This document shows, piece by piece, positions 6,425 to 52,435 of a stretch of 56,821 bases of DNA. The stretch comes from Bacteroidaceae bacterium (GTDB lineage Bacteria; Bacteroidota; Bacteroidia; Bacteroidales; Bacteroidaceae), in NCBI GenBank assembly GCA_017615125.1, contig JAGAAS010000077.1, positions 1 to 56,821 of the forward strand, in the 5' to 3' direction. The stretch's first letter is position 1. Every line of letters starts with the position of its first letter. The notes beneath the pieces were generated by a model. That model was not told where the DNA came from. It saw only the letters and a list, made by a program, of their open reading frames with translations, and did no database searches. Both the position numbers and the translations under genes were made by a program.

Positions 6425-6582
6425 TTCCTTCTCCAAAAAAATTTTTTCTTTCTTCATACGGCGAGATTCCTTGAGCATAATTGCTCTTCCTCTTTCGCGA
6501 CTCGGCAAAGCCTGAGCAAGCTCCACTTTGCTCTCGCTGCTCCATCGGTTCTCGAAAAAAATTTTTCCCTTCTTCTCCCTGA
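6425..6582 (-). repeat. Family A interspersed repeat, locus a (two parts)
   Basis: On the minus strand, 6425-6474 reads as GAATCTCGCCGTATGAAG, then GAAAGAAAAAATTTTTTTGG, then AGAAGG, nearly identical to the locus at 34041-34087. A second part, 6548-6582, has the GGGAAAAATTTTTTTCGAGA core. About 70 unrelated bases lie between. The block abuts the stop codon of subunit I within the V-ATPase operon. Confidence 0.8.
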
Positions 6583-6583
6583 A

Positions 6584-8452
6584 TCATGCTTTCTGCACCT
6601 TGCGGAAGGGATGATACTCCTCGCCTCCTCCCGTGTAGCCGGCGTTCTTGAAAAACTCGACGAACGTGAGTCGCATGGGGTGTACGATAGCTCCCAGGAT
6701 GTTCATGAAAATATTGAGCGCATGCCCCACACAGAAGATGAGCGCGGTAACGAGGAATCCGATGACGGGTGTCTTCGGGCTCATGCCCACAGCCATACTG
6801 TTGAACACCTGCCCCAGGATTCCTCCACTCAAGCCCAGCGCAAAGAGGCGGACGTACGAGAGCACGTCGCCCAGCAGGCCTGTAGCCATATTGTAGGTAT
6901 CCCACAGGCCCAGTCCTACGTTGAGCAGCGGATTCTTGCCCGGGCTGTTGAAGAAGAAGATGCCCACAGCAGCCAGCGCCAGCAGGGCTATCACCACAGG
7001 ATGGTGGAAGCCGATGCCCGTGAGGGCAGCTACCCCGACGGTGACAAGCAGCACTATCCACCCTATCGTGCTCAGCGCGTGCTTGATGCCGCATTGGATG
7101 CTGAGGTTCACAGCCTTCAGGATCATTCCGAAGAGAATCTGCACGACACCGATGCCGAGCGAGACGGTAAACATCTTCGAGCTATCGATGTAGAACAGTT
7201 CCTTCATCTTCTGGATGAACGGAATGTCGAGATCATAAATCTGGAATCCGAAGAACGTGCCCGAGAGCGCCCCGCAAAGCATCGTGCTGATGCCGAAGAG
7301 GACGACGAGCCCTTTGCTGAACTCGGGGTTGATGAGCTTGAACAACTTCACGAAAATCGGAAGCGCCACTATCATCAGCAGCCCGTAGCCCATATCGCCC
7401 AGACAGAGGCCGAAGAACAGCATGAAGAACGGCGCGAAGAAAAGCGTGAGGTCGAGCTCGCGGTACGAGGGCAGCATGTAAAGCTTGGTGAGTGGCTCGA
7501 AGAGCTTGGCAAACTTCTTGTTGCTCAGCTCGATGGGGATGTTATCCTCGGGCGTGGGGTCGTCGATCTGATAGAACTGCCCCGACTCGTCGAGCGTCGC
7601 GCGGATGTCGTCGACCTGCTTGGCAGGAACCCAGCCCTGCAGCAGGTAGAGCTTGTCGGCAGCTACGGGCTCACCCGTGAGCCGCACGCGTGTGAAGTCT
7701 ATCGTATCGGAAAGGGTGTCTCTGGCTTCATCGAGCACGGGAACGGCAGCTGCCGCAAAGGCAGAAACCTGCGCGTCGACGGAGCTTATCTCTGCCTGCA
7801 ACGCCTCCACATCGCGGTGAAGGGCTTTCAGCGAGCTGTGGGGCAAGCGGCAGATGTCGGCATCTACGTCGGGCTCCACATCGGGAGGCGTGACGGTGAT
7901 GAAATAGACGTTCTGCTTGTCGTGACGGATGACGATGGCGTTATACTCCTTCTCCCACGCCTCGCAGTATGCCTTCTGGAGGCAGCAGAAGAAGTGCATC
8001 CTATAGCCTGCAGCAGCCAGCTTGTCTATCATCTCGGGGTCGAAGTCGCCCCAGGGCTCCAGCGTCTGGATATCCTTCGTGAGAACAGCCAAACGCTGCT
8101 CGGCAGCACTTCGCTGCGCCTGCAGGTCATCGTAACGGGAAAGGATCTCCTCTGCCGAGAGGCCTTTCAGCGATGCCTCGTGCGAGACAGCATCGGAAGC
8201 CTTATCAGCAACGGCAGCAACCTTCTTGGAAGCTTCGGAAGCCTTTGCTGCAGCAACGAGGGGTTCGAGGGCATTGACGACAGCGTTGCTGCGACTCAGC
8301 AAGGTGACGTCGCGCTGCAGCGCAGTATCCTCAATCTCGCTCTCCTGCTTCACCTCCACGTGGACGACGCCCATATCGCGGAGCTTTTCCAGGAACTCTT
8401 CGTACTCTTTATAGAACACCAGGAAGGTGAGCTTCTTCATTCGCGTAATCAT
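6584..8452 (-). CDS. ntpI: V-type ATP synthase/ATPase subunit I (membrane stator, a-subunit)
   Basis: A 622-residue protein with a cytosolic, largely alpha-helical N-terminal half (two coiled-coil stretches, about residues 85-115 and 205-245) and a C-terminal membrane half starting with LFFAPFFMLFFGLCLGDMGYG, the standard subunit I signature. The essential arginine of the ion path is R535 in SYVRLFALGLSGG. It forms the half-channels next to the K ring and anchors the peripheral stalk. Its start overlaps the end of subunit D by 4 bases (ATGA), so translation is coupled. It is slightly shorter than many family members. Confidence 0.95.
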   Translation of the reverse strand: MITRMKKLTFLVFYKEYEEFLEKLRDMGVVHVEVKQESEIEDTALQRDVTLLSRSNAVVNALEPLVAAAKASEASKKVAAVADKASDAVSHEASLKGLSAEEILSRYDDLQAQRSAAEQRLAVLTKDIQTLEPWGDFDPEMIDKLAAAGYRMHFFCCLQKAYCEAWEKEYNAIVIRHDKQNVYFITVTPPDVEPDVDADICRLPHSSLKALHRDVEALQAEISSVDAQVSAFAAAAVPVLDEARDTLSDTIDFTRVRLTGEPVAADKLYLLQGWVPAKQVDDIRATLDESGQFYQIDDPTPEDNIPIELSNKKFAKLFEPLTKLYMLPSYRELDLTLFFAPFFMLFFGLCLGDMGYGLLMIVALPIFVKLFKLINPEFSKGLVVLFGISTMLCGALSGTFFGFQIYDLDIPFIQKMKELFYIDSSKMFTVSLGIGVVQILFGMILKAVNLSIQCGIKHALSTIGWIVLLVTVGVAALTGIGFHHPVVIALLALAAVGIFFFNSPGKNPLLNVGLGLWDTYNMATGLLGDVLSYVRLFALGLSGGILGQVFNSMAVGMSPKTPVIGFLVTALIFCVGHALNIFMNILGAIVHPMRLTFVEFFKNAGYTGGGEEYHPFRKVQKA

Positions 8453-9075
8453 ACGGCACCCTCCTTTCTTTCATTTTCTTCTTCCTCGCGCTTCTCAAGG
8501 ATCGTCTTGAGGATTTTCTGCGACGACTTGGAGAGGTTCTCCTCGTCCTCGATGAAACGCTTTATCTTGCGGATGGCGTCGGCATAGCCTGGGATCTGCA
8601 CCTTCTCGAAGAGGTTCACCTTCTGTGTCGTCTTCTTGCGTGCATGCTCCAGGAGCCCCAACTTTGCCTGCAGGAACTCGCAGTTGATGGCTGTCGTTGC
8701 CAGCCCTTGCAGCAGCGTGATGCCGTCGTAGTACCATTTAGGGCTGTTGAACAGGCTGAAAGGCTTCACCGAGAAGGAGACGTCGCCGAGCACAGGAACG
8801 CGCACGCCGGCAATCTTCTTCACGTTGAGCTGCACGTCCTCTACGCGCACGAGCGAGTCGTCGAACTCGTTCCACAGCTTGAACATGTACTGGTAAGCCT
8901 GTATCTGCTTCTCCAGCTCGCGCTCGAGCCTGTTCACTTCCACCTTGCAGCGCTTCACCTCCAGCCGCAGGGCACTCTCCTTGTTCTTGATGATAGGGAG
9001 CGTGCGCTGCCTCACCTTGAGTTGTTTCTCGAGGTGCTGCAGGGATGTCTTGTTATACTGAAACTTGATGGCCAT
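8449..9075 (-). CDS. ntpD: V-type ATP synthase/ATPase subunit D (central rotor stalk)
   Basis: A 208-residue protein with long helical heptad-rich segments at both ends (about residues 10-65 and 145-200), as expected of the coiled-coil rotor shaft that passes through the A3B3 head. NKTSLQHLEKQLKVRQRTLPIIKNK at the N-terminus follows the family pattern of Lys/Arg-rich helix starts. Its start lies 3 bases after the subunit B stop codon and its end overlaps subunit I by 4 bases. Confidence 0.92.
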   Translation of the reverse strand: MAIKFQYNKTSLQHLEKQLKVRQRTLPIIKNKESALRLEVKRCKVEVNRLERELEKQIQAYQYMFKLWNEFDDSLVRVEDVQLNVKKIAGVRVPVLGDVSFSVKPFSLFNSPKWYYDGITLLQGLATTAINCEFLQAKLGLLEHARKKTTQKVNLFEKVQIPGYADAIRKIKRFIEDEENLSKSSQKILKTILEKREEEENERKEGAV

Positions 9076-9078
9076 GAA

Positions 9079-10398
9079 TTATTTTCCCCAATAGGTGTCG
9101 ACAAATTCTTTCTTGATGTTCACCTCCTCGGGCTTGAAGTACTTAGAGAAGAGCCCCCAGGTAGTGTCGAGCATCTCGGTAGTGTTGAGGTTCACGTCGA
9201 TGGCGAGCAGCTTGTCGGAATAGTCGCGAGCAAAGTTAAGGGTACGCTCGTCGTAGTCGGTGAGGTCGAAGCCGTTCTCCATCTTCGTCTTGGCGTTGGC
9301 GGCGTCGGCGTAGAGACGCACGGCAGCGTTCATCACCTGCGAGTGGTCCTTGCGCGTCTTCTTCCCTGCCACGAGCTGCTTCAGACGGCTGAGCGAACGG
9401 AACGGGTCGACGATGACCTTACCGATGTCGCTGTCGCGACGGAGGAAGAGCTGTCCCTCGGTGATGTATCCCGTGTTGTCGGGTACGGCGTGCGTGATGT
9501 CGCCTCCCGAGAGCGTGGTAACGGCAATGATGGTAATGGAGCCTCCCGAGGGGAACTGAACGGCCTTCTCGTACACCTTCGCCAAATCGCTGTAGAGCGA
9601 GCCAGGCATGGAGTCCTTCGAAGGAATCTGGTCCATACGGTTGCTCACGATAGCCAGCGCGTCGGCGTAGCTTGTCATATCGGTGAGGAGCACGAGCACC
9701 ATCTCGTTCTTCTCCACAGCGAAGTACTCGGCAGCCGTGAGCGCCATATCGGGCACGAGGAGTCGCTCCACAGGAGGATTCTCGGTGGTGTTCACGAAGG
9801 AGATGATTCGGTCGAGGGCACCGGCGTTGGAGAAGACGTTCTTGAAGTAGAGGTAGTCGTCGTTGGTCATACCCATGCCTCCGAGAATAATCTTATCCGT
9901 CTTGGCACGCAGCGCCACGTTGGCCATCACCTGGTTGAAGGGCTGGTCGGGGTCGGCGAAGAACGGTATCTTCTGTCCCGAAACGAGCGTGTTGTTCAGG
10001 TCGATGCCGGCGATGCCCGTAGCTATCAGCTCGGAGGGCTGCTTGCGGCGCACGGGGTTCACGGAGGGTCCTCCGATCTCCACCTCGCGTCCCTCGATCT
10101 GCGGGCCTCCGTCGATGGGGTTTCCGTAGGCGTCGAAGAAGCGTCCTGCCAGCTGGTCGCTGACCTTCAGCGTAGGAGCCTTGCCGAGGAAGACGACCTC
10201 AGCGTTGGTGGGAATGCCGCCCGTGCCTTCGAACACCTGCAGGGTGACGTTGTCGCCGTCGATCTTAACCACCTGGGCCAGCTTGCCGTTGATGGTTGCC
10301 AGCTCGTCGTAGCCCACGCCCGTAGCCTTTAATGAACACGTTGCCTTTGTTATCTGGCTAATCTTCGTATATATCTTCTGAAAAGCTGTTGTTGCCAT
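9079..10398 (-). CDS. ntpB: V-type ATP synthase/ATPase subunit B (non-catalytic head subunit)
   Basis: A 439-residue non-catalytic nucleotide-binding subunit. The position of a P-loop is taken by FFADPDQPFNQVMAN, without a GxxxxGKT, as expected for B. Family stretches include VLLTDMTSYADAL, NRMDQIPSK, GYITEGQLFLRRD and LDTTWGLFSKY. It alternates with subunit A in the hexameric head. It lies 36 bases downstream of subunit A. Confidence 0.95.
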   Translation of the reverse strand: MATTAFQKIYTKISQITKATCSLKATGVGYDELATINGKLAQVVKIDGDNVTLQVFEGTGGIPTNAEVVFLGKAPTLKVSDQLAGRFFDAYGNPIDGGPQIEGREVEIGGPSVNPVRRKQPSELIATGIAGIDLNNTLVSGQKIPFFADPDQPFNQVMANVALRAKTDKIILGGMGMTNDDYLYFKNVFSNAGALDRIISFVNTTENPPVERLLVPDMALTAAEYFAVEKNEMVLVLLTDMTSYADALAIVSNRMDQIPSKDSMPGSLYSDLAKVYEKAVQFPSGGSITIIAVTTLSGGDITHAVPDNTGYITEGQLFLRRDSDIGKVIVDPFRSLSRLKQLVAGKKTRKDHSQVMNAAVRLYADAANAKTKMENGFDLTDYDERTLNFARDYSDKLLAIDVNLNTTEMLDTTWGLFSKYFKPEEVNIKKEFVDTYWGK

Positions 10399-10434
10399 AC
10401 TTATATATATTCACCTATTGTCGTTGGTTGTCAT

Positions 10435-12183
10435 TTACTTTCTCGTTGCCACGAAGTCGTCCAGTTCCTTGCGGTACTTGTAGTACTCTTCCGACTTGTA
10501 TACACAGTAGTTCACCTGCTTGCAGATGTTGATAACCTTCTTGAAGAAGTCCATTACCTCAAGGAAGTTGTCGAAGACGAAGTCGGTGCGGCAGATGTCC
10601 ATCACCATATTGAGAATCTCCTCCTGGCGCTCCATCGGGCAGAGGGCGTCCACCTCGTCGAAGGCGTCCTGCTGGAGCACGACATAGTCGAGAAGCTCCG
10701 ACTTCCAGAACGTCACGTGGTACTCAACGGGCACGCCGTCGTCGCCCAGAATGTTGATCTGTTCGGCAATCTCCTTGCCGCGCAGCAGGCGGGTCTTCAC
10801 CTCGTTGACCTTATCGAGCCACTCGCCGTTGATGCGCTGAGCGATGTACTCCTGGAACTCAGGATACTCAAGGTATTTCGAGTATGAGTCAATGGGGTTC
10901 ACGGCTGGGTAGCGCTTCCTGTCGGCACGCTCCTGCTCGAGGGCATAGAAGCAGCGGGCCACCTTCTTGGTGTTCTCGGTAACGGGTTCCTTCAGGTTAC
11001 CACCTGCGGGGCTCACGGTACCGATGAACGTGATGGAGCCCTTCTCGCCGTTGCCGAGCGTTACGTAGCCCGCACGGCCGTAGAAGTTCGATATGATGGC
11101 AGAGATGTCCATAGGGAAGGCATCCGGTCCGGGAAGTTCCTCCATACGGTTCGACATCTCGCGCAGAGCCTGTGCCCAGCGGCTTGTGGAGTCAGCCATC
11201 AGCAGCACGCGCAGACCCATAGCGCGATAATATTCGGCCATCGTCATAGCGGTGTACACCGAAGCCTCACGCGCAGCCACAGGCATGTTGCTGGTGTTGG
11301 CGATGATGATGGTGCGCTCCATAAGCTTGCGTCCCGTGTGCGGGTCGGCAAGCTCGGGGTACTCGGTGAAGATTTCCACCACCTCGTTGGCACGCTCTCC
11401 GCAGGCAGCCATGATGACGATATCGGCAGCAGCCTGCTTCGAGATAGCATGCTGGAGCACGGTCTTACCTGTTCCGAAAGGACCAGGGATAAATCCCGTA
11501 CCGCCCTCCACGATGGGGTTCACAGTATCGAAGGTGCGCACGCCTGTCTCCAAGAGCTTGAAGGGGCGAACTTTTTCCTTATAGTGAGTCATAGCCACCT
11601 TCACGGGCCAGTGCTGCACCATATCCACCTTCACGTCGTTGCCCTGCTCGTCGGTGAGCACAGCTATGGTGTCGCGGATGGTGTAGTCGCCTTCGGGAGC
11701 GATACTCTTCACCGTGCAGGTACTCTCCATCTGGAAGGGAGCCATGATCTTCAGCGGCTGGAAGTTCTCCACCACCTTGCCGAGCCAGTCGGCAGCCTTC
11801 ACCTTGTCGCCTGCCTGTACGAGGGGCTCAAAGTGCCACAGACGGTCATCGTCGAGAGGGTCGGTGTATTGTCCACGCTTCAGGAACACGCCCTCCATCT
11901 TGTCGAGGTCGTTCTGCAGGCCGTCGTAGTTCTTCGACAGCATGCCTGGTGCGAGCTGCACCTCCAGCATGTGCCCGGTGAACTCCACGTCGGCGCCTAC
12001 CTTCAGTCCGCGCGTGCTCTCGAACACCTGCACGTACACTTTCACGCCCACCACTTTGATGACCTCCGCCATCAGGCGCTGGCCTCCGAGCAGGATATAG
12101 CATATTTCATTCTGGGCAACGGGGCCGTCCACCGTCAGCGTCACCATGTTGGCAATCACGCCACTAACTTTTCCTTTTGTCAT
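10435..12183 (-). CDS. ntpA: V-type ATP synthase/ATPase subunit A (catalytic head subunit)
   Basis: A 582-residue catalytic subunit with the Walker A motif GPFGTGKT (K240; most relatives have GPFGAGKT) and the following GERANEVVEIFTEYPEL, where the catalytic glutamate lies. LLMADSTSRWAQALREMSNR and SPAGGNLKEPVTENT are conserved contact regions. The non-homologous region typical of V-type A subunits precedes the P-loop. ATP hydrolysis or synthesis at the A/B interface drives the D rotor. It begins 18 bases after the DUF2764 gene stop codon. Confidence 0.97.
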   Translation of the reverse strand: MTKGKVSGVIANMVTLTVDGPVAQNEICYILLGGQRLMAEVIKVVGVKVYVQVFESTRGLKVGADVEFTGHMLEVQLAPGMLSKNYDGLQNDLDKMEGVFLKRGQYTDPLDDDRLWHFEPLVQAGDKVKAADWLGKVVENFQPLKIMAPFQMESTCTVKSIAPEGDYTIRDTIAVLTDEQGNDVKVDMVQHWPVKVAMTHYKEKVRPFKLLETGVRTFDTVNPIVEGGTGFIPGPFGTGKTVLQHAISKQAAADIVIMAACGERANEVVEIFTEYPELADPHTGRKLMERTIIIANTSNMPVAAREASVYTAMTMAEYYRAMGLRVLLMADSTSRWAQALREMSNRMEELPGPDAFPMDISAIISNFYGRAGYVTLGNGEKGSITFIGTVSPAGGNLKEPVTENTKKVARCFYALEQERADRKRYPAVNPIDSYSKYLEYPEFQEYIAQRINGEWLDKVNEVKTRLLRGKEIAEQINILGDDGVPVEYHVTFWKSELLDYVVLQQDAFDEVDALCPMERQEEILNMVMDICRTDFVFDNFLEVMDFFKKVINICKQVNYCVYKSEEYYKYRKELDDFVATRK

Positions 12184-12201
12184 ATAGAGTTATAGAGTTT
12201 T

Positions 12202-13041: not shown

Positions 13042-13044
13042 GAC

Positions 13045-13638: not shown

Positions 13639-13680
13639 TTGATATTTAATTGGTTAGGTTTTCCTCGTAATTTTCCGCTG

Positions 13681-14013: not shown

Positions 14014-14204
14014 GTTACATCTGTTACGCGTTACACGTTATTTCTTTAAGGGGGTATATGCAGCAAAAAAGGGGGTTTTTGGAAAAAGGTAGAGTAGTAG
14101 AGAAGTATAATACTTATAATATATAATTAGCATTTACTCTCACTATTTACTGCGCTACGATATACCCCTTAAAGAAATAACGTGTAACGCGTAACAAATG
14201 TAAC
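14014..14204. repeat. Long inverted repeat with about 44-bp arms
   Basis: The left arm, 14014-14058, begins GTTACATCTGTTACGCG and ends GGGGGTATA. The right arm, 14161-14204, is its reverse complement except for one mismatch (C/T) and one extra G in the left arm. The roughly 100-base AT-rich spacer has no gene. Each arm contains a heptad-like direct repeat (GTTACGC, GTTACAC, GTTATTT). The layout resembles a small non-autonomous element or a strong cruciform; no target-site duplication is evident. Confidence 0.75.
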
Positions 14205-14287: not shown

Positions 14288-14367
14288 ATGGAGAAGGGAA
14301 AATAATTTATGGAGAAGGGAAAAAAATTTTTTCTTTCTACATACGGCCGTATGAAGAAGGGAAAAAT
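14288..14367 (+). repeat. Family A interspersed repeat, locus b
   Basis: Two tandem GGAGAAGGGAAAA units are followed by AAAAATTTTTTCTTTCT and the perfect palindrome ATACGGCCGTAT, then GAAGAAGGGAAAAAT. The palindrome replaces the one-sided CGCCGTATGAAG of other loci. It lies upstream of the YdeI-like gene. Confidence 0.7.
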
Positions 14368-20342: not shown

Positions 20343-22787
20343 ATGTTTAAAATAGTAGCCAAAGAGGCTTTTTCCGAGAAAGTTTTCAAACTTGAAATAG
20401 AGGCTCCCCTCATTGCCAAATCGCGCAAGGCTGGACACTTCGTCATCGTGCGCACTCACGCCAAAGGCGAGCGCATCCCCCTCACGATAGCCGCTGCCGA
20501 CACCACGCGCGGCACCATCACCCTTGTGGTACAGAAAATCGGCGTGAGCAGCACGATGCTCTGCGATATGAACGTGGGCGACGAGCTGAAGGACGTTGTT
20601 GGCCCCCTCGGGCAGGCAACCCACATCGAGAACTTCGGCACCGTGCTCTGCGCGGGAGGAGGCGTGGGGGTGGCTCCCATGCTTCCTATCATTCAGGCAT
20701 TGAAAGCTGCTGGAAACAAGGTCATTGCCGTCCTCGCTGGGCGAAGCAAGGACCTCATCATCCTTGAGGAAGAAGTCAGATCCTCAGCCGACGACGTCAT
20801 CATCATGACCGACGACGGCTCGTATGGGCAGAAGGGCGTCGTCACCGTCGGAATGGAGCAGGTCATCCAGCGCGAGAAGGTGGACAAGTGCTTTGCTATC
20901 GGCCCAGCCATCATGATGAAGTTCTGCTGCCTCCTCACGCAGAAGTACAACATCTCTACCGACGTGTCGCTCAACACCATCATGGTTGACGGCACAGGAA
21001 TGTGCGGAGCCTGCCGCGTGGAGGTGGACGGACGGACGCGCTTCGTCTGCGTCGACGGCCCTGAGTTCGACGGGCACAAGGTTGACTGGGACGGCATGAT
21101 GCGCCGCATGGGCTCCTTCAAGACAGAGGAAATCGCTGCCTTCGAGAAGTATCTCTCGGAGGCACAGAAGGGGCATGAAATTTTCGAGAAGGAAAAAAAT
21201 TTTTTCGAGAAGGAATCTCGCGAGATGAAGAAAGAAAAAATCGCGCTCGAAGGCTCAAATTCTGCACAAGAAAAAACATCCTCTCAAAAGGAGCATTTTT
21301 CCGACGGAAAAACTCCCCTTTCCGAGCTGCTTGACAGAAAAGCCATCTGGCGCGAGGAACTGCGCAAATCCATGAAGCCGAAGGAGCGCACAGCCATCGA
21401 GCGATGCCCGATGAACGAACTTGATCCCGTGTACCGCGCAACAACTCGTACGGAGGAAGTCAATCAAGGATATACACCCGAGCAGGCTGTAATGGAGGCA
21501 CACCGCTGTCTCGACTGCGTCAACCCCACCTGTATGGAGGGATGCCCTGTAGCCATCGAGATACCTTCGTTCATCAAGAGCATTGAGCGAGGAGCCTTCC
21601 TCGACGCTGCTCGCGTGCTGAAGCACACCTCTGCCCTACCCGCTGTCTGCGGACGAGTATGCCCGCAGGAGAAGCAATGCGAGAGCCGCTGCATACATCT
21701 GAAGATGGGCGGAAAGGCCGTAGCTATCGGAAACCTCGAGCGCTTCGCTGCCGACTACGAGCGCGAAAGCGGACACATGTCGCTGCCCGAGAAAGAAGAA
21801 GCCAACGGCATCCGCATCGCCGTCGTCGGCTCGGGCCCTGCAGGGCTGAGCTTTGCAGGCGATATGGTGAAACACGGATACGACGTCACCGTCTTCGAGG
21901 CTCTTCACGAGATGGGCGGCGTGCTGAAATACGGCATTCCAGAGTTCCGTCTGCCCAACAGCATCGTTGACGTAGAAATCGGAAACCTTGAGAAACTGGG
22001 CGTACGCTTCGTGAAAGACTGCATCATCGGAAAGACCATTACCGTTGACGAGCTTCAGAAGCAAGGCTTCAAGGCCATCTTCGTTGCCACAGGCGCAGGC
22101 CTTCCCAACTTCATGAACATCCCCGGGGAGAACAGCATCGGCGTGATGTCGTCGAACGAATACCTCACCCGCGTCAACCTCATGGACGCTTCCAATCCCG
22201 AAACCGACACGCCCATCAGCCCTGCTGAGAACGTGATGGTTGTCGGCGGAGGAAACACGGCTATGGACTCGTGCCGCACGGCAAAGCGTCTGGGAGCCAA
22301 GCATGTCTTCATCGCCTACCGTCGCAGCGAGGCAGAGATGCCCGCTCGTCTGGAGGAAGTGAAACACGCCAAAGAGGAAGGAATCGAGTTCCTCACCCTT
22401 CACAACCCTCTCGAATACATCGCCGACGAAAAGGGACACGTCCGCCAGGTTGTGCTCCAGAAGATGGAGCTGGGCGAGCCCGACGCAAGCGGCAGACGCA
22501 GCCCCATTCCCATGATGAAGGAGGACGGAACGCCTGACACCATCACGCGGGACATTGACCTCGCAGTAGTAGCAGTTGGCGTAAGCCCCAATCCCATTGT
22601 GCCGAAGAGCGTGAGCGGGCTGGAGCTGGGAAGAAAGAACACGATTGCCGTCAACGACAGCATGCAGTCAAGCATACCCACGCTCTTTGCCGGAGGAGAT
22701 ATCGTACGCGGAGGAGCAACCGTAATCCTTGCTATGGGCGACGGAAGGCGCGCTGCGGCAGCTATGCACGAAATGCTTTCCCGCTAA
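20343..22787 (+). CDS. Fused NfnAB/SudAB-like protein: ferredoxin-NADP reductase subunit plus GltD-type subunit
   Basis: An 814-residue fusion. Residues 1-270 are an FNR/DHODB-type FAD and NAD(P) module (GHFVIVRTH, LCAGGGVGVAPMLPII) with a [2Fe-2S] site of D216, C221, C224 and C236, as in NfnA. From about residue 345 comes a GltD/NfnB-type module with N-terminal [4Fe-4S] cysteines (CLDCVNPTCMEGCP, CGRVCPQEKQCESRC), an FAD motif VVGSGPAGLSFAGD and an NADP motif VVGGGNTAMDSCRTAKR. The likely role is electron-bifurcating transhydrogenation between NADPH, NADH and ferredoxin, or a glutamate synthase small-subunit role. The linker, residues 280-300, is encoded by a family A repeat. The gene stands alone and converges on the lipoprotein gene 12 bases away. 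Confidence 0.9.
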   Translation: MFKIVAKEAFSEKVFKLEIEAPLIAKSRKAGHFVIVRTHAKGERIPLTIAAADTTRGTITLVVQKIGVSSTMLCDMNVGDELKDVVGPLGQATHIENFGTVLCAGGGVGVAPMLPIIQALKAAGNKVIAVLAGRSKDLIILEEEVRSSADDVIIMTDDGSYGQKGVVTVGMEQVIQREKVDKCFAIGPAIMMKFCCLLTQKYNISTDVSLNTIMVDGTGMCGACRVEVDGRTRFVCVDGPEFDGHKVDWDGMMRRMGSFKTEEIAAFEKYLSEAQKGHEIFEKEKNFFEKESREMKKEKIALEGSNSAQEKTSSQKEHFSDGKTPLSELLDRKAIWREELRKSMKPKERTAIERCPMNELDPVYRATTRTEEVNQGYTPEQAVMEAHRCLDCVNPTCMEGCPVAIEIPSFIKSIERGAFLDAARVLKHTSALPAVCGRVCPQEKQCESRCIHLKMGGKAVAIGNLERFAADYERESGHMSLPEKEEANGIRIAVVGSGPAGLSFAGDMVKHGYDVTVFEALHEMGGVLKYGIPEFRLPNSIVDVEIGNLEKLGVRFVKDCIIGKTITVDELQKQGFKAIFVATGAGLPNFMNIPGENSIGVMSSNEYLTRVNLMDASNPETDTPISPAENVMVVGGGNTAMDSCRTAKRLGAKHVFIAYRRSEAEMPARLEEVKHAKEEGIEFLTLHNPLEYIADEKGHVRQVVLQKMELGEPDASGRRSPIPMMKEDGTPDTITRDIDLAVVAVGVSPNPIVPKSVSGLELGRKNTIAVNDSMQSSIPTLFAGGDIVRGGATVILAMGDGRRAAAAMHEMLSR
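21181..21240 (+). repeat. Family A interspersed repeat, locus c, inside a coding sequence
   Basis: TTTTCGAGAAGGAAAAAAAT, then TTTTTCGAGAAGGAATCTCG, then CGAGATGAAGAAAGAAAAAA. The same units occur between genes at seven other places. Here they are read in frame as the Glu/Lys/Phe-rich linker (IFEKEKNFFEKESREMKKEK) between the two halves of the NfnAB-like protein. 60 bases equal 20 codons. Confidence 0.8.
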
Positions 22788-27145: not shown

Positions 27146-27231
27146 ATTTTTCGAGAAGGGAAAAATTTTTTTTCTTTCTTCATACGGCGAGATTCTTTCT
27201 TCATAATTTTTTCTTGAAGGAGAAAAAATCG
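27146..27231 (-). repeat. Family A interspersed repeat, locus d
   Basis: TTTTTCGAGAAGGGAAAAAT, then TTTTTTTCTTTCTTCATACG and GCGAGATTC, then a second CTTTCTTCAT and TTGAAGGAG. It sits between kdgK and eda, so it would be transcribed within that operon. Confidence 0.8.
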
Positions 27232-29994: not shown

Positions 29995-29996
29995 CT

Positions 29997-30090
29997 GGAG
30001 AAAGTATCTCACGATATGAAGAAAGAATCTCGCCGTATTCTTTCTTCATACGGCGAGATGTAGAAAGAAAAAATTTTCAAGGAGAAAAAA
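29997..30090 (+). repeat. Family A interspersed repeat, locus e, with perfect hairpin
   Basis: ATGAAGAAAGAATCTCGCCG is followed by the inverted copy CTTTCTTCATACGGCGAGAT. The arms ATCTCGCCGTAT (30027-30038) and ATACGGCGAGAT (30048-30059) form a perfect 12-bp stem with a 9-base loop. It begins 3 bases after the uxaA stop and could serve as a 3'-end structure, though no U-tract follows. Confidence 0.8.
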
Positions 30091-34010: not shown

Positions 34011-34097
34011 TTTTGGAGAAGGAAAAAAATATTTTCGAGAAGGAATCTCGCCGTATGAAGAAAGAATAAATTTTTTTGGAGAAGGGAAAATTTCCGT
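34011..34097 (+). repeat. Family A interspersed repeat, locus f (clearest copy)
   Basis: TTTTGGAGAAGGAAAAAAAT, then ATTTTCGAGAAGGAATCTCG, CCGTATGAAGAAAGAATAAA, TTTTTTTGGAGAAGGGAAAA. It shows the unit order GAGAAGG / TCTCGCCGTATGAAG / poly A-T / GAGAAGG. It lies just upstream of the pectate lyase start. Confidence 0.85.
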
Positions 34098-34187
34098 TTC
34101 CTTCTTCTCTTGATCTTTTTCGAGTTAAATCCGCTATTTTTCTCTTCGTTCATTAATTAAAAAAACTCTTCTCGCAGATATGAAAAG

Positions 34188-36063: not shown

Positions 36064-36241
36064 TTGCAAAGATAGGGTGAGCTGAGAGAAAAACCAAATT
36101 TATTTGAATTTTTCCGAGGCGATCCCTATCTAAAACCAGAGGTTAAAGATAGTGCGAGGCGAGCGAAGAACAAAATAAATGGTATTTATTTTTTCGTCCG
36201 AGCCGATGCCTATCTAAAACCGTAAGCTACAGATAGTGCAA
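36064..36241 (-). repeat. Family P promoter-bearing repeat upstream of aspS
   Basis: Read on the minus strand it contains three box-like sites: TATCTGTA (36228-36235), TATCTTTA (36144-36151) and the intact TATCTTTG (36067-36074). They are separated by CGGTTTTAGATAGG, GAAAAAATAAA, TTTATTTTGTTC and TTCGCTCGCCTCGC segments. The same series, in the same order, lies upstream of pyrB on the other strand. The decayed boxes pair with the downstream AGATAG to make hairpins. Confidence 0.75.
36067..36098 (-). promoter_or_regulatory. Promoter of aspS
   Basis: TTTG (36095-36098), 20 bases, TATCTTTG (36067-36074), minus strand, inside the family P repeat; leader of about 60 bases. Confidence 0.65.
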
Positions 36242-42107: not shown

Positions 42108-42192
42108 AATTTTCGAGAAGGAAAAAAGAATTTTCGAGAAGGGAAAAATTTTTTTGAAGAAAGAAAAAATCTTTTTGGAGAAGGAAAAAATT
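42108..42192 (+). repeat. Family A interspersed repeat, locus g
   Basis: ATTTTCGAGAAGGAAAAAAG, then AATTTTCGAGAAGGGAAAAA, TTTTTTTGAAGAAAGAAAAA, ATCTTTTTGGAGAAGGAAAA. Three GAGAAGG units are present but the TCTCGCCGTATG core is missing, so this is a partial or decayed copy. Confidence 0.75.
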
Positions 42193-42326
42193 CGGCTTCT
42201 TTCTCTTCCTCTGCGGCGCGGGATAAAAACTGTTGAAATTCCGGCTTCGAAAATGCATAAAAAAGGAATGTTTTGGGTGTGAGAATTTAGATAGGAAAAG
42301 GCTTGAAAAGGAAAAAATAGTTTTAA

Positions 42327-42470
42327 GCGCCTCGCACTATCTTTAACCTTCGGTTTGTGCAGCTCACCCTATCTTTAACCTTCGGTTTTAGATAGGCTTC
42401 GGCTCGAAAGAAAAAATAAAACTTCGTTTTTATTTTGTTCTTCGCTCGCCTAGCACTATCTTTGCAGAGT
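42327..42470 (+). repeat. Family P promoter-bearing repeat upstream of pyrB
   Basis: Boxes TATCTTTA (42338-42345), TATCTTTA (42370-42377) and TATCTTTG (42457-42464) occur in order. Each A-type box begins a hairpin, CTATCTTTAACC-ttc-GGTTTTAGATAG in the complete case. AAAAAATAAAA and TTTTTATTTT flank CTTCG in a second hairpin. The segments match those upstream of aspS almost base for base. Confidence 0.8.
42434..42464 (+). promoter_or_regulatory. Promoter of the pyrB-pyrI operon
   Basis: TTTG (42434-42437), exactly 19 bases, TATCTTTG (42457-42464). It forms the right end of the family P repeat; leader of about 55 bases to the pyrB ATG. Confidence 0.75.
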
Positions 42471-45218: not shown

Positions 45219-45294
45219 ACCCTTTTCATATCCATCCACAGCCTCTATAGCATAACTTTTTCACACTTTTCTTTCGAATTAACATTTTTCTGCC

Positions 45295-45302
45295 TATTTT
45301 TG
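45295..45302 (+). promoter_or_regulatory. -7 box upstream of the His-rich membrane protein
   Basis: TATTTTTG 44 bases before the ATG; a TTCG at 45273-45276 could be a weak -33 element. Confidence 0.45.
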
Positions 45303-45346
45303 CAGCATCAATAACACTTCATCACATTTTAATACTAAGAAAAACA

Positions 45347-45763: not shown

Positions 45764-45799
45764 GTACAGGATAATTAGTGCACTAAAAAATATCATAAC

Positions 45800-46417: not shown

Positions 46418-46454
46418 CATATCTCCCCCGGAGCACGGAGAGTCGGCCCTTCAT

Positions 46455-47363: not shown

Positions 47364-47382
47364 GAGTCTTATATTTTTTCGG

Positions 47383-48276
47383 TTACAGACACAGCGTTTC
47401 CAGCTCACTGTACTTTTCAAGCGCATACTCCAGAAGAATCTGCGTCTCAGCATCCATAGGAGGAACTTCCACACAATGGTAGTTGACATTAGCAGGATGA
47501 AGTACCACTAAATACATATGCGCCAGCTCAATATCATAATGACGTTTCAGAATATATCTATATAGATTTTGCTGCAAGCAATAGTGCATATAGGCTGTAT
47601 CTCCTAAATGGCTTAGCCTCCCTAAAGCTTGCCGTCCAAATTTGTTATCACGCTGAACGACAAACTCTCTAACGCCCTCATATCCTATCTTATTACTCCG
47701 CTTCCAGTCATACATAATGAAATTTCCTTCCGCATCCGTTGCCAAATAGTCAATGGTTCCAGCAACTCCGTGTTCCTCGTCACAAATACGCCATTCCGTA
47801 CGATACGACAAAGGGCATTCTCCCTGCAGAAACTCATCAAACAAAGATAACTCATGCGAAATGCCTATCTCCTTCTGACATTTCACGTAAGCTCCGTTAT
47901 ATTGGAAAGAAAAAGACCTTTCCACCTGTAAGCCTAACAGTTTCCGCTCGATTTGCTGGTGCATGAACGTGCCCGTATCACGTGCCTCCTTTCCCTGGGA
48001 TTCCCACTCCTCCAGAATTTGCTCTTTCGGATGAGAAGGGGAAGACAGTCTTTCGGCCTTTCTTTCGCAGTCAAACACAGGAAAGCACTCGGAAATAAGT
48101 GAGCTGACAGATATCTGCAGCTGATTGTCAAATGTGTAAATATGTTTTTCAGGAAAGAAATGAACATGACTGTCACGCTCGTTTGCATGCTCCAAGTTAA
48201 ATGCTATAGGCTCGCTACACTCCTCTTTTCCTAATGTCTCCAACTCAAGGTTCATCGTTTTCTTCCTTCTAATCAT
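47383..48276 (-). CDS. Stand-alone RecB-type PD-(D/E)XK nuclease-like protein
   Basis: A 297-residue protein carrying the full RecB-family motif set: GTFMH (G102-x3-H106), a glutamate in RTEWRI (E161), GTIDYL (D176), YDWKRS (D190-x-K192) and Q-x3-Y in QQNLY (Q235, Y239). These are the metal-binding and catalytic residues of Cas4/AddB/RecB-like nucleases. No helicase domain or Fe-S cysteine cluster is visible. The ATG overlaps the thrA stop codon by one base (TGATG), so it is translationally coupled to thrA. It could be a DNA end-processing or repair nuclease; its partner is unknown. Confidence 0.75.
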   Translation of the reverse strand: MIRRKKTMNLELETLGKEECSEPIAFNLEHANERDSHVHFFPEKHIYTFDNQLQISVSSLISECFPVFDCERKAERLSSPSHPKEQILEEWESQGKEARDTGTFMHQQIERKLLGLQVERSFSFQYNGAYVKCQKEIGISHELSLFDEFLQGECPLSYRTEWRICDEEHGVAGTIDYLATDAEGNFIMYDWKRSNKIGYEGVREFVVQRDNKFGRQALGRLSHLGDTAYMHYCLQQNLYRYILKRHYDIELAHMYLVVLHPANVNYHCVEVPPMDAETQILLEYALEKYSELETLCL

Positions 48277-50732
48277 CAAATATTAGCAATGCTCATGATA
48301 TCGGCAAAGACGCCTGCAGCCGTTACTGCAGCGCCTGCGCCATAACCTTGTATCATCATAGGATACTCCTTATATCTTTCCGTAGTCAATAGGATAATAT
48401 TATTGGAACCCTCTAAGTTATAGAGCGGATGCCAACGATTCACTTCTTTTAATCCTACGCTTGCATGCCCTTGATCCAACGTAGCCACGAAGCGCCATCG
48501 TTTGTTCTCACGCACCAAGCGCTGACGTTCCTTCTCAAATGGCTCGTCAAGCTCTTCCACTCTCTCCCAGAAATCATCCATACTGCCTTCGAACATCTCC
48601 TGCGGAATAAAGAGGTTCCTTTCCACATCGTCCTGCTCAAGCGCATACCCAGCCTCACGCGCCAAAATGACCAATTTACGTATCACGTCTTTTCCACTCA
48701 AGTCGATGCGAGGATCTGGCTCGCTGAATCCCTTCTCCTTAGCCAGATGAATGGTATCTGAAAGAAGGCAGTCGGCGCTGATAGTGTTGAAGATAAAATT
48801 AAGCGTACCACTCAAAACAGCCTCTATCTTCAAGATGCGATCGCCAGAGTTGATGAGGTCGTTTATTGTGTTTATGATAGGTAAGCCTGCTCCTACGTTC
48901 GTCTCGAAAAGGAATTTCACGCCTTTGCTTCGCGCCATATCTTTCAGATAGCGATAATTCGCATAATCTGAAGAAGCCGCAATCTTGTTTGCCGCAACGA
49001 CACTAATATTATGTTCAAGGAAATCGCCATATAAAGAAGCAACTTCATTGCTGGCAGTACAGTCGACAAACACGCTATTGAAGATATTCATCCCTATAAC
49101 CTCGTCACGCAAACGTTGGATATTCGAAGGTCCGCCTTCCTTCAAACAAGTGCGATAGTTGTCAAGCGGAATCCCCGCACGGTCAAACACGCCATAATGT
49201 CCCGTAGCAATACCAACCACATTCAGTTGCAAGCCACGTTCCTTCATCAGTTTCTCGCGCTGGGCACGAATTTGCTCGAGGAGGCTGCTTCCTACTGTCC
49301 CTACGCCACAAACAAATAGGTTAAGTACGTTATACTCCGAGAGGAAGAACGAATCGTGAATGACATTCAGCGTCTTGCGCAGCCATGTTTTTTCTACGAC
49401 AAACGATATATTCGTCTCGCTAGCCCCCTGAGCCGTTGCCATCACGTTGATACCGTTACGCCCCAGCACGCCAAACAGTTTGCCAGCAATTCCTGTATTG
49501 CCCCGCATATTCTCTCCGACGATAGCTACGGTAGCAAGGTCACGAACAATCTGCATGCGATTCATCTCTCCTAACGCTATCTCCTTAGCAAACTCCGTAT
49601 CCAGTACTTGAGCAGCTGCTTCGGCATCGACAGCACGCACACCTATTGACGTACTGCTCTCTGAAGAAGGCTGAGCCACAAGGAACACGCTGATACCCGC
49701 AGCTGCCAGCGAGCCAAAGATGCGCTGGTTGATTCCGATGATGCCTACCATTCCAAGCCCCGTCACATTGATAAGGTTCGTATCACCAATGCTCGAGATT
49801 CCCTTAATCGGACGGCTGTTATCCTGCAGTTTGTCGCGAATGATAGTACCGGGAGCTGAGGCGTTGAACGTATTCTTAATAAGGATAGGAATATTCTTGT
49901 GGAATGCAGGGTAAATGGTTGGCGGATATACGACTTTCGCACCGAAGTTGCACAATTCCATCGCCTCCACATAGGATAGTTCCTCTATCACATAAGCTGT
50001 GGAAATGACTCTCGGGTCGGCAGTCATGAAGCCGTCCACATCCGTCCAGATCTCAAGGACGCTTGCATTCAGCACGGCAGCAAGGATAGCAGCCGTATAG
50101 TCAGAACCTCCGCGCCCAAGATTTGTTATACGCCCCGTTGCTACATCCGTTGAGATAAATCCAGGAACAAGGGCTATGCGTCGCATTCCGTCTGACTCTT
50201 CGTTCTTCATCTTGTCGAAATGCTGCGACACCAGTTCTTCGGTCTGTTCTTTGTTTACCAGATGTTTGCCGCCCTTGTCCTCCGTCTTCATAAACTGCCG
50301 CGAATCGTATAGTTCAGCGCCATCAATAAGCGTAGAGGCAATCAGGCTTGACAGACGTTCTCCGTAACTCACTACTGTATCCATCGTATGAGCCGAGATA
50401 TCGCGCAGCAGATAGAGTCCGCGATAGATATTCTGCAATTCGGAAAGCAGCGCGCGCACTCTCTTGTAGAGCGTAGCTTTCCGGCTGGTACCCGCGGGGA
50501 TCACCGCGCGAATCATCTGCTCGTGACGCTTCACCAGCGCCTCGAACTCCAGCTCGTAGCCGCTGTCGCCTGCCGACGCCATCTTAGCCATCAGGATAAG
50601 CTTGTCGGTGACGCCTCCCAGCGCCGAGACTACCACGATGACCGATTCCGTCTGTGCCTCCACGATCCTCTTCACTTGCAGGATGCTCTCCACAGAGCCT
50701 ACCGACGTTCCGCCGAATTTCAATACTTTCAT
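48276..50732 (-). CDS. thrA: Bifunctional aspartokinase / homoserine dehydrogenase
   Basis: An 818-residue fusion. Residues 1 to about 290 are aspartokinase (MKVLKFGGTSVGSVESI, GRGGSDYTAAILAA). About 310-455 are two ACT domains (IGINQRIFGSLAAAGISVF, VLGRNGINVMATAQG). From about 465 comes homoserine dehydrogenase (LFVCGVGTVGSSLLEQI, then GAGLPIINTINDLINSGD and the catalytic Asp/Lys region FSEPDPRIDLSGKDV). It commits aspartate to threonine and methionine synthesis and is probably threonine-inhibited through the ACT domains. thrB and thrC do not follow; a RecB-like nuclease gene does. Confidence 0.97.
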   Translation of the reverse strand: MKVLKFGGTSVGSVESILQVKRIVEAQTESVIVVVSALGGVTDKLILMAKMASAGDSGYELEFEALVKRHEQMIRAVIPAGTSRKATLYKRVRALLSELQNIYRGLYLLRDISAHTMDTVVSYGERLSSLIASTLIDGAELYDSRQFMKTEDKGGKHLVNKEQTEELVSQHFDKMKNEESDGMRRIALVPGFISTDVATGRITNLGRGGSDYTAAILAAVLNASVLEIWTDVDGFMTADPRVISTAYVIEELSYVEAMELCNFGAKVVYPPTIYPAFHKNIPILIKNTFNASAPGTIIRDKLQDNSRPIKGISSIGDTNLINVTGLGMVGIIGINQRIFGSLAAAGISVFLVAQPSSESSTSIGVRAVDAEAAAQVLDTEFAKEIALGEMNRMQIVRDLATVAIVGENMRGNTGIAGKLFGVLGRNGINVMATAQGASETNISFVVEKTWLRKTLNVIHDSFFLSEYNVLNLFVCGVGTVGSSLLEQIRAQREKLMKERGLQLNVVGIATGHYGVFDRAGIPLDNYRTCLKEGGPSNIQRLRDEVIGMNIFNSVFVDCTASNEVASLYGDFLEHNISVVAANKIAASSDYANYRYLKDMARSKGVKFLFETNVGAGLPIINTINDLINSGDRILKIEAVLSGTLNFIFNTISADCLLSDTIHLAKEKGFSEPDPRIDLSGKDVIRKLVILAREAGYALEQDDVERNLFIPQEMFEGSMDDFWERVEELDEPFEKERQRLVRENKRWRFVATLDQGHASVGLKEVNRWHPLYNLEGSNNIILLTTERYKEYPMMIQGYGAGAAVTAAGVFADIMSIANI

Positions 50733-50819
50733 CTTCCGAACAGTTTATTACGGTTCCTTTGTCAAGGGTTCTGGCACCTTCAGCAAAGGCTTTTTCCACT
50801 TTGTTTGATAATTTGCGAG

Positions 50820-50827
50820 CAAAAATA
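50820..50827 (-). promoter_or_regulatory. -7 box of the thrA promoter
   Basis: TATTTTTG on the minus strand, 88 bases upstream of the thrA start. The divergent radA box is only 22 bases away, so the two promoters overlap in their -33 regions. The 88-base leader has no obvious threonine-rich leader peptide. Confidence 0.45.
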
Positions 50828-50849
50828 CGAATTATTTGATAAAAATCCT

Positions 50850-50857
50850 TACTTTTG
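50850..50857 (+). promoter_or_regulatory. -7 box of the radA promoter
   Basis: TACTTTTG 22 bases upstream of the radA ATG. Confidence 0.55.
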
Positions 50858-50879
50858 TGCATAAAAACGATGAAATAAA

Positions 50880-52295
50880 ATGGCAAAGGGAGTCAACAAG
50901 ATAGTTTACATGTGCAGCAACTGCGGCAACGATCAGCCCAAGTGGTTCGGACGTTGCCCTTACTGCGGTGAATGGAACACTTGCGTCGAGAAGAGCATTC
51001 CCCTCGCATCGAAGGGAGGCCCGACAAAAGCATTCTCTTCTGGCAGTTTACAAGGAGAATCTGTTCCTCTCGCTTTGGCAGAGATAGAGACCGACAGCGA
51101 AGCGCGTCTTGATATGTGCGACGAGGAGCTCAATCGCGTCTTGGGAGGCGGACTTGTACAAGGCTCGCTGGTGCTTCTGGGTGGAGAGCCGGGTATAGGC
51201 AAGTCGACGCTCGTGCTGCAGACAGTCCTGCGCCTGAAGGGGAAAACAGTGCTCTATGTATCGGGCGAGGAGTCTGCCTCGCAGCTGAAGATGCGTGCCG
51301 AAAGGCTTGGCGCCGGGCAAAAAAACTCCGACGGCCTGCGCATTCTCTGCGAGACGCACCTGCAGCAGGTGCTTGAGCAATGTACGGCGCTTCGTCCCGA
51401 CTTGCTCGTCATTGACTCCATTCAGACAATGTGGACCGACCTTGCCGAGTCGTCTCCCGGCAGCATCACGCAGGTGCGCGAATGTGCCGCAGCTATTCTC
51501 AACTACGTGAAGGAGCAGAACATTCCAGCCGTCCTCATCGGACATATTAATAAGGAAGGAACCATCGCCGGGCCGAAGATTCTCGAGCACATCGTCGATG
51601 CCGTTCTTCAGTTCGAGGGCGACAGGCACTACATGTACCGCATCCTTCGCGCGCAGAAGAATCGTTTCGGAAGCACCGCCGAGCTTGGAATCTACGAGAT
51701 GCGGCAGGATGGGCTGCGTCAGGTAAGCAACCCAAGCGAGCTGCTCCTTACTGAAAGACACGATGCTATGAGCGGAATATCCATCGCGGCAGCAGTCGAA
51801 GGCATCCGCCCCTTCCTCATCGAGGTGCAGTCGTTAGTGAGCACAGCTGCCTACGGCGTTCCGCAGCGAAGTGCCACAGGCTTCGACATCCGGCGCATGA
51901 ATATGCTGCTTGCTGTTTTGGAGAAACGCGTGGGCTTCAAGCTTGCCACAAAAGATGTGTATCTCAACATCGCAGGAGGCTTGCGCGTCAGCGATCCAGC
52001 TATTGACCTTGCTGTCATCAGCGCTGTTCTCTCGAGCAATCTTGATGTCGACATCAACCCGACGGTTTGTATGGCAGGCGAAGTGGGGCTCTCGGGGGAG
52101 ATACGCCCTGTGAGCCGCATCGAGCAGCGCATCCAGGAGGCTGCCAAGCTGGGTTTCCACGATATGCTCATTCCGCAGCACAACTACGCGCAGCTCCAGT
52201 CTCTCTCCTCCTCTTCCCGCGTCGAAGGCAGCTCCTCCATTCAGCTTCATCCCGTTCGAAAAGTGGAAGAGGCGTTCCGTTTCCTCTTCGGCTGA
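50880..52295 (+). CDS. radA: DNA repair protein RadA (Sms)
   Basis: A 471-residue protein with an N-terminal zinc finger (C12-x2-C15 ... C26-x2-C29 in CSNCG and CPYCGEW), a RecA-like ATPase core with Walker A GGEPGIGKST (K108), the RadA-specific KNRFG motif in AQKNRFGSTAELG, and a C-terminal Lon-like domain. It drives branch migration of recombination intermediates. Confidence 0.97.
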   Translation: MAKGVNKIVYMCSNCGNDQPKWFGRCPYCGEWNTCVEKSIPLASKGGPTKAFSSGSLQGESVPLALAEIETDSEARLDMCDEELNRVLGGGLVQGSLVLLGGEPGIGKSTLVLQTVLRLKGKTVLYVSGEESASQLKMRAERLGAGQKNSDGLRILCETHLQQVLEQCTALRPDLLVIDSIQTMWTDLAESSPGSITQVRECAAAILNYVKEQNIPAVLIGHINKEGTIAGPKILEHIVDAVLQFEGDRHYMYRILRAQKNRFGSTAELGIYEMRQDGLRQVSNPSELLLTERHDAMSGISIAAAVEGIRPFLIEVQSLVSTAAYGVPQRSATGFDIRRMNMLLAVLEKRVGFKLATKDVYLNIAGGLRVSDPAIDLAVISAVLSSNLDVDINPTVCMAGEVGLSGEIRPVSRIEQRIQEAAKLGFHDMLIPQHNYAQLQSLSSSSRVEGSSSIQLHPVRKVEEAFRFLFG

Positions 52296-52331
52296 CGGGA
52301 GGCCCCAGAGAGGTTTCTCAATGGGCCAAAA

Positions 52332-52435
52332 TTATGAAGAAAGAAAAAGAATTTTTCGAGAAGGAATCTCGCCGTATGAAGAAAGAAAAAAAATTTATCC
52401 CTTCTCGAAAATTTTATTTGGAAAAAGAAAAAATT
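52332..52435 (+). repeat. Family A interspersed repeat, locus h
   Basis: ATGAAGAAAGAAAAAGAATT, then TTTCGAGAAGGAATCTCGCC, GTATGAAGAAAGAAAAAAAA, and the inverted CCCTTCTCGAAAATTTT. Both orientations of the GAGAAGG unit are present, so the whole can fold on itself. It lies between radA and relA. Confidence 0.8.

What the first reader, a model, noticed from the sequence alone, without database searches (positions are those of the whole stretch)
6425..52435. Family A: an interspersed repeat at eight loci in 57 kb
Near-identical blocks built from GAGAAGG, a poly A/T run, and TCTCGCCGTATGAAGAAAG occur at about 6425, 14288, 21181, 27146, 29997, 34011, 42108 and 52332, in both orientations. Seven sit between genes, several touching stop codons or lying inside operons; several copies fold into hairpins (perfect 12 bp at 30027-30059; palindrome ATACGGCCGTAT at locus b). 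That is about one per 7 kb, a density like REP/BIME or MITE elements. No matching transposase is in the window. They could be a non-autonomous mobile repeat, an mRNA 3'-end stabiliser, or a nucleoid-protein binding site.
Basis: seen in the sequence. Interest (0 to 1): 0.78.

Follow-up and report, generated by a model that had tools for sequence, protein, structure and literature searches.

The report
Genome-wide 21-bp tile mosaic repeat
Hundreds of short DNA patches, built by placing 21-base-pair tiles in varying order and direction, are scattered mostly between the genes of one rumen bacterium and a close relative; they look like a freely tolerated, fast-changing repeat whose copying mechanism is unknown.

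Summary
All eight loci are real, and the core motif occurs 258 times in the 3.03-Mb genome (reversed control 3). The "blocks" are arrays on an exact 21-bp lattice: an 11-bp directional purine core, then a 10-bp joint of two 5-bp halves, tiles in either direction. Of 18 sampled congeners only G005 also has the family; the other 17 have 0-1 hits. Common words and occupied sites differ between the two species. Joints are mostly like-ended (AT with AT, GC with GC): 119/129 and 347/381, against about 50% expected. Tiles within an array are no more alike than tiles of different arrays, so local slippage does not explain most of them. Arrays are mostly intergenic, without preference for convergent, divergent or tandem spacers. 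No REP-type (Y1) transposase match in either carrier draft; no terminal inverted repeat seen. Best reading: a non-autonomous, neutrally tolerated interspersed mosaic repeat, similar in style to BIME or BrickBuilt but a member of neither. How it spreads is not shown.

The parts
6425..6472 (-). array a, main piece (two detected cores plus a degenerate cell)
6555..6602 (-). array a, second lattice fragment on the far side of a hairpin element
   Evidence: (family D4)
14289..14362 (.). array b, tile orientations > > < >, with the TACGGCCGTA joint
21184..21236 (+). array c, three tiles, in frame in the inter-domain linker of a PRK12778-type fused oxidoreductase gene (20343-22787)
27151..27225 (.). 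array d, > < < >; G005 has a differently composed array in the same spacer
29996..30069 (.). array e, starts 1 bp after the stop of the upstream gene; absent from G005
34014..34108 (+). array f, > > > > <; G005 has an array in the same spacer
42113..42207 (+). array g, > > > > <, AT-type joints; lacks the TCTCGCCGTA joint
52335..52429 (+). array h, > > > < >

Best explanation
Family A is a non-autonomous, neutrally tolerated interspersed mosaic repeat. SHOWN: each array (mostly 2-7 tiles; the longest seen has 10 detected cores over 242 bp, in G005) sits on an exact 21-bp lattice. A tile is half-joint + 11-bp directional core + half-joint. Tiles can lie in either direction. Neighbouring tiles meet at a 10-bp joint whose halves are, in about nine of ten cases, both A/T-type or both G/C-type, like dominoes. 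The common words and many occupied sites differ between the two carrier species found in the genus. Arrays occupy about a quarter of eligible spacers of every gene orientation, and one coding linker in the window. INFERRED: arrays spread and are rebuilt by copying short stretches between existing dispersed arrays. The common joint centres (G|C, or A/T runs) act as exchange and inversion points, which keeps the 21-bp register. Cells tolerate them where they break neither promoters nor frames (21 bp is two helical turns and seven codons). The enzyme or repair route that moves them is unknown.
For: 258 motif copies in G000 and 135 in G005; 0-1 in the other 17 congeners. Order-wide unit-pair pattern: 508 in G000, 0-4 in the other 392 genomes, controls 0-7 (no other congener was in that draw). 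Histogram of core spacings up to 130 bp: 124 pairs at 21 bp in G000 and 110 in G005; listed spacings that are not multiples of 21 reach at most 4. Like-ended joints 119/129 and 347/381 against 0.52 and 0.50 expected. Half-core mutual information excess 0.26-0.58 bits, core-core across the joint 0.09 and 0.12 bits. Tiles within arrays no more alike than permuted: G000 8.24 vs 7.67 mismatches, G005 7.92 vs 7.87 (43 of 50 and 141 of 165 arrays, weaker ones dropped). Positive control: the 22-bp family shows local duplication in G000, 2.17 vs 5.04, 0/1000 permutations, 7 arrays; in G005 the control is weaker, 3.00 vs 4.05, 51/1000, 6 arrays. Exact 32-bp words are shared between arrays in 31 of 43 (G000) and 88 of 141 (G005). 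No gene-orientation preference, p = 0.73. Array presence in 30-39 orthologous spacers is not significantly associated between the species, p = 0.13 to 0.74 by spacer-length cut. Array c is read in frame, and G005 carries an oppositely oriented array in the same linker.
Against: No copying event was seen directly: one genome per species was available, and G000-G005 spacers align poorly at about 80% identity, so no clean insertion boundary or target duplication was found. Exact spacing despite A/T tracts could mean selection on phasing, i.e. a function. The like-end rule is not explained by copying alone. Modules are not perfectly free: core-core linkage across the joint is small but significant in G005 (0 of 500 permutations), and within a class the halves are not independent: different halves are favoured and identical ones under-represented (GC-type 7 vs 19 expected in G000 and 23 vs 32 in G005; AT-type 14 vs 15.7 and 28 vs 46.5). 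In G005, 10 of 60 arrays fell in called genes, against 3 of 50 in G000 (my own gene calls, weak arrays included). Tandem-spacer arrays lie nearer the upstream stop (40 of 53), which avoidance of promoters would explain but so might a 3'-end role. The site-sharing test has little power.
Confidence: 0.58

Rival explanations
1. A helically phased binding lattice for a nucleoid or regulatory protein: cores on the same face of DNA every two turns, kept by selection.
For: Exact 21-bp spacing even across A/T tracts; wide spread through intergenic DNA; 21-22-bp periods are also common among unrelated minisatellites in several relatives; arrays dephased by 5 bp in a script are straighter in the curvature model, 0.9459 vs 0.9265.
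Against: Missing from 17 of 18 congeners; common core words differ between the two carriers; array curvature equals that of shuffles, 0.9265 vs 0.9276; no context preference.
Confidence: 0.17
2. A MITE or other transposase-driven element whose ends have decayed.
For: Expansion in two of 19 genus genomes; sites present in one species and absent in the other, e.g. locus e and G005 C26:58548; BrickBuilt in Porphyromonas gingivalis is a precedent.
Against: Outward alignment of 82 (G000) and 86 (G005) array ends shows only the fading lattice, no terminal inverted repeat; lengths and compositions vary from copy to copy; target duplications could not be assessed.
Confidence: 0.1
3. A REP/BIME family moved by a RAYT (Y1 transposase).
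For: Copy number, density and mosaic build resemble BIMEs.
Against: No Y1_Tnp match in G000 or G005, while 7 of the 19 genus genomes have one, several of them near the cut-off; tiles are not self-complementary hairpins; tile orientation does not regularly alternate, 88 of 124 neighbouring pairs are co-oriented in G000. G000 is 87% complete.
Confidence: 0.05
4. An ordinary minisatellite grown by replication slippage at each locus.
For: Constant period; a few G005 arrays, such as C3:43024, hold near-identical neighbours.
Against: Tiles within arrays are not more alike than tiles of different arrays, while the 22-bp family of G000 passes that test; tiles flip in register; the same words recur at many loci.
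Confidence: 0.05
5. Transcription terminators or mRNA 3'-end stabilisers.
For: Some arrays form hairpins; mean RNA-fold z is -1.16 in G000 (26% of 86 folds below -2) and -2.17 in G005 (50% of 90 folds below -2); in tandem spacers 40 of 53 lie nearer the upstream stop.
Against: Divergent spacers carry them as often as convergent ones, 17/64 vs 14/53; sense and antisense are mixed, 30 vs 20 with 3 equal.
Confidence: 0.05

Closest known systems
BrickBuilt (23-nt minisatellite inside a MITE, Porphyromonas gingivalis; PMC4596501: abstract, section 5 and part 1 of section 7 read)
   Same: Bacteroidales, dispersed, intergenic arrays of a two-helical-turn-sized imperfect unit with no spacers between units.
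   Different: Period 21 not 23; 50 arrays in 457 kb rather than 19 per genome; no leader, tail or IS5-like terminal inverted repeats found; tiles flip and reassort; no transposase partner identified.
BIME/REP of enterobacteria (PMC2817692 and PMC3116915: search listing with start of abstract only; details recalled)
   Same: High-copy extragenic mosaic of short oriented modules.
   Different: Units are not hairpins, orientation does not alternate, exact 21-bp lattice with half-joints, no RAYT match in the carriers.
Mosaic intergenic repeats such as pneumococcal BOX (PMC3049150, listing only), neisserial NIME/dRS3 and rickettsial RPE (recalled)
   Same: Combinatorial modules between genes; RPE-like in-frame presence inside a coding gene (locus c).
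   Different: Much shorter modules and a domino-like like-end rule.
Short tandem heptamer repeats, e.g. TAACTGA in Beggiatoaceae (PMC4679880, passages read)
   Same: Lineage-patchy intergenic direct repeats, also in a few Bacteroidetes.
   Different: Single 7-bp word; most of those in the Maribeggiatoa genome lie just upstream of putative start codons.

Membership tests
REP/BIME | high-copy, dispersed, mostly extragenic | tested here: met
   258 motif hits; 44 of 50 sampled G000 arrays and 47 of 60 sampled G005 arrays intergenic
REP/BIME | unit is an imperfect palindrome (hairpin) | tested here: not met
   two halves of one tile are less complementary than shuffled in G000 (3.35 vs 2.84 mismatches) and equal to shuffled in G005 (2.76 vs 2.77)
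REP/BIME | associated RAYT (Y1_Tnp) | tested here: not met
   no match in G000 or G005; 7 of 19 genus genomes match; drafts are 87% and 91% complete
REP/BIME | regularly alternating orientation | tested here: not met
   88 of 124 (G000) and 78 of 110 (G005) neighbouring tiles are co-oriented
BrickBuilt | 23-nt tandem unit | tested here: not met
   21 bp in 124 and 110 core pairs; 23 bp is not among the listed spacings
BrickBuilt | leader and tail with IS5-like terminal inverted repeats | tested here: not met
   outward end alignment, 82 and 86 ends
MITE | terminal inverted repeats | tested here: not met
   outward end alignment shows only the fading lattice
MITE | target-site duplication | tested here: inconclusive
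   eight one-sided sites inspected; flanks too diverged
slippage-born minisatellite | neighbouring units more alike than units of other loci | tested here: not met
   with the 22-bp family as positive control (clear in G000, weaker in G005)
intrinsic terminator / 3'-end element | enriched at 3' ends, depleted between divergent genes | tested here: not met
   14/53 convergent, 17/64 divergent, 53/234 tandem; but 40 of 53 tandem arrays lie nearer the upstream stop

The most novel reading that the evidence does not exclude
A domino-type repeat: 21-bp tiles with two kinds of compatible ends (G|C-centred and A/T) that a dedicated enzyme joins, flips and reassorts at the joint centre. It would behave like a site-specific recombination system with non-polar crossover sites, or like hairpin-ended tile ligation. 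Each species evolves its own tile vocabulary on the same 21-bp ruler.
Probability: 0.12. Interest if true: 0.88.

Novelty: new variant of a known kind. Interest (0 to 1): 0.62.

Why it matters
Known interspersed bacterial repeats are often either hairpin REPs tied to a transposase or slippage-grown minisatellites (recalled). This one is neither by the tests made here. It has an exact two-turn lattice, reassorting tiles with a like-end rule, no transposase identified, and a vocabulary and set of sites that differ between two related species. That makes the question of how such repeats are copied and kept in register testable in one rumen genus with draft genomes, and it bears on how intergenic DNA and disordered protein linkers are filled.

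Tried and rejected
RAYT search: none in the carriers. Viral contigs: no exact 18-mer match. RNA folding: moderate; all 43 stronger G000 arrays but only 45 of 141 G005 arrays were folded. Ancestral sharing of sites: 8 of 17 G000 arrays with an orthologous spacer looked shared (33 of 50 had no orthologous anchor in the G005 sample). One of these (C91:84635) fell into neighbouring spacers, and the spacer-level association is not significant. An early idea that halves across a GC joint are fully independent (G005) did not survive a finer, symmetrised grouping. A working note said the linker insertion was unique to G000; some searches showed an array there in G005 too. The exact 22-mer also lies on a Paludibacteraceae MAG contig, a genome with 3 hits in all. 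A 6.9-kb piece of that contig had no DNA match in 19 genus genomes, in a search without a positive control, so transfer or a misbinned third carrier stays open. Literature: searches listed no title or abstract start describing this family. One search, for three motif strings, found 24 papers holding at least one; in the 10 listed only CAACGCGTTG occurs, in unrelated work.
Full report
OBSERVATION. The window is contig C41 of a 3.03-Mb, 107-contig draft genome, 87% complete and 4% contaminated. In a 457-kb sample I found 50 arrays, one per 9 kb.

ANATOMY. Reading the arrays in register shows an exact 21-bp lattice. A histogram of spacings between core matches gave 124 pairs at 21 bp in G000 and 110 in the congener G005. 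The next peaks are multiples of 21, and other listed spacings are at 4 or fewer. Each cell is an 11-bp directional core, then a 10-bp joint. The commonest cores in G000 are TGAAGAAAGAA, TCGAGAAGGAA, TGTAGAAAGAA and TGAAGAAGGGA; in G005 TGGAGAACAAA and TGAAGAAGGAA are also common, which are rare in G000. The joint is two 5-bp halves drawn from a short list read outward from each core: AAAAA, AAAAT, TAATT, TCTCG, TACGG, TATCG, GCGCG. Tiles may be flipped without loss of register.

GRAMMAR. Joints are like-ended in 119 of 129 cases (G000) and 347 of 381 (G005), against 52% and 50% expected. Each half is statistically tied to its own core (0.26-0.58 bits excess). Cores across a joint are only weakly linked (0.09 and 0.12 bits; the latter, in G005, beyond all 500 permutations). 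Within a class, different halves are favoured over identical ones, so perfect palindromes are under-represented: GC-type 7 vs 19 expected (G000) and 23 vs 32 (G005), AT-type 14 vs 15.7 and 28 vs 46.5. Tiles within an array are no more alike than tiles of different arrays (43 of 50 and 141 of 165 arrays, weaker ones dropped). The same kind of test on the joints of a 22-bp family detects local duplication clearly in G000 (2.17 vs 5.04; 0 of 1000 permutations; 7 arrays) and more weakly in G005 (3.00 vs 4.05; 51 of 1000; 6 arrays), while 21-bp joints show none (6.19 vs 5.40 and 5.77 vs 5.55).

DISTRIBUTION. Of 19 genomes of the genus, G000 has 258 and G005 135 hits; the other 17 have 0-1. Eighty-two further relatives have 0-3, about the level of their controls. 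A unit-pair pattern over 393 genomes of the order gave 508 in G000 and 0-4 elsewhere, controls 0-7 (no other congener was drawn). One further exact match lies on a contig of a Paludibacteraceae MAG, which has 3 hits in all.

CONTEXT. By my own scripted gene calls, 44 of 50 G000 arrays are intergenic, with 3 in a called gene, 2 at a gene edge and 1 at a stretch end; in a 400-kb sample of G005, 47 of 60 are intergenic and 10 lie in called genes (some weak in-gene arrays may be chance). Occupancy of spacers with at least 60 bp left after removing the array is 14/53 convergent, 17/64 divergent and 53/234 tandem, p = 0.73. In tandem spacers 40 of 53 lie nearer the upstream stop, and orientation is 30 sense, 20 antisense, 3 equal (both species pooled, arrays scoring 30 or more). 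Locus c lies in frame in the linker between the two halves of a PRK12778-type protein. Of the 15 congener proteins aligned, 14 have other linker sequence, and G005 carries an array in opposite orientation at that place.

TURNOVER. Seventeen of 50 G000 arrays have an orthologous spacer in the 1.19-Mb G005 sample; 8 looked shared and 9 specific, and 33 had no anchor. At spacer level the association is not significant (7 both, 7 G000 only, 6 G005 only, 15 neither at a 40-bp cut, p = 0.29; other cuts p = 0.13 and 0.74). Orientation and composition at shared sites often differ. Spacers are too diverged to see insertion boundaries.

MECHANISM. Shown: lattice, flips, like-end rule, species-specific common words, site differences, neutral-looking placement. 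Inferred: copying of short stretches between dispersed arrays with exchange at joint centres. Exact 32-bp words are shared between arrays in 31 of 43 (G000) and 88 of 141 (G005), while exact 53-bp words link only 8 and 4 arrays, which fits short-tract copying. No mover is identified. Y1_Tnp has no match in either carrier, and array ends show no inverted repeats.

COMPARISON. BrickBuilt of P. gingivalis (PMC4596501; abstract, section 5 and part of section 7 read) is the nearest described relative in style that I found, with a 23-nt unit, 19 copies, and leader and tail with terminal inverted repeats. Family A fails its period and end features. It fails the hairpin, alternation and RAYT features of REP/BIME. 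It is therefore filed as a new variant of the broad kind 'bacterial interspersed mosaic repeat', a member of neither family.

WIDER NOTE. Among tandem repeats of period 14-35, periods 21 and 22 make up 44 of 65 arrays in G000, 108 of 165 in G005, 9 of 19 in G009, 9 of 19 in G012, 4 of 9 in G001, 1 of 4 in G007, 1 of 2 in G011, 8 of 10 in G026 and 6 of 7 in G060, with other sequences in the relatives. They do not stand out in G023 (2 of 6), G045 (0 of 2) or G075 (1 of 5). A shared two-turn ruler is possible, but samples are small.

Noticed in passing
window 6495-6543 (minus strand); L264-L283: A separate hairpin element, GGAGCAGCGAG...CCGAGTCGCGA with a variable, apparently compensating stem (consensus fold -14.1 kcal/mol over 20 distinct copies). 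Found in 7 of 19 genus genomes, 76 copies in G017, reversed control 0. At least 6 of its 9 G000 copies lie inside or within about 120 bp of family A arrays (two of the nine were not looked at); in other species several copies sit in other tandem filler. No Rfam match at the element in the two loci searched.
   Followed up: partly
G000 C91:135872-135974 and elsewhere (22-bp arrays of CAACGCGTTG): A second dispersed lattice, 22-bp period with palindromic core CAACGCGTTG and variable 12-bp joints: forward counts 80 in G000, 33 in G005, 29 in G009, 22 in G003, 21 in G016, 5 in G012, 3 in G017, none in the other 12 genus genomes; controls 0-10, the 10 being G000.
   Followed up: partly
L112-L131, L244-L263: 21-22 bp is a common minisatellite period in several relatives with unrelated sequences, suggesting a common two-helical-turn ruler; not in all relatives sampled.
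   Followed up: partly
window 36090-36240 and 42328-42470: Another inverted pair of repeats, up to 97% over 35 bp, holding CTATCTTTAACC...GGTTTTAGATAG palindromes and a CTATCTTTGCA promoter-like word.
   Followed up: no
window 14014-14053 and 14165-14204: 40-bp inverted repeat, 98% complementary, around a 111-bp centre, MITE-like in shape.
   Followed up: no
L011 about 7268-7330: A family A array on a Paludibacteraceae MAG contig (water buffalo omasum) whose 6.9-kb neighbourhood gave no DNA match in the genus, in a search without positive control: transfer, or a misbinned third carrier.
   Followed up: partly
G004, G013 and G015 PRK12778-type linker proteins; G011 C77:3999-4179: The same protein linker, and spacers in other congeners, seem by eye to be filled by other species-specific short repeats, e.g. 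10-bp TTTATCTCCA arrays in G011.
   Followed up: no
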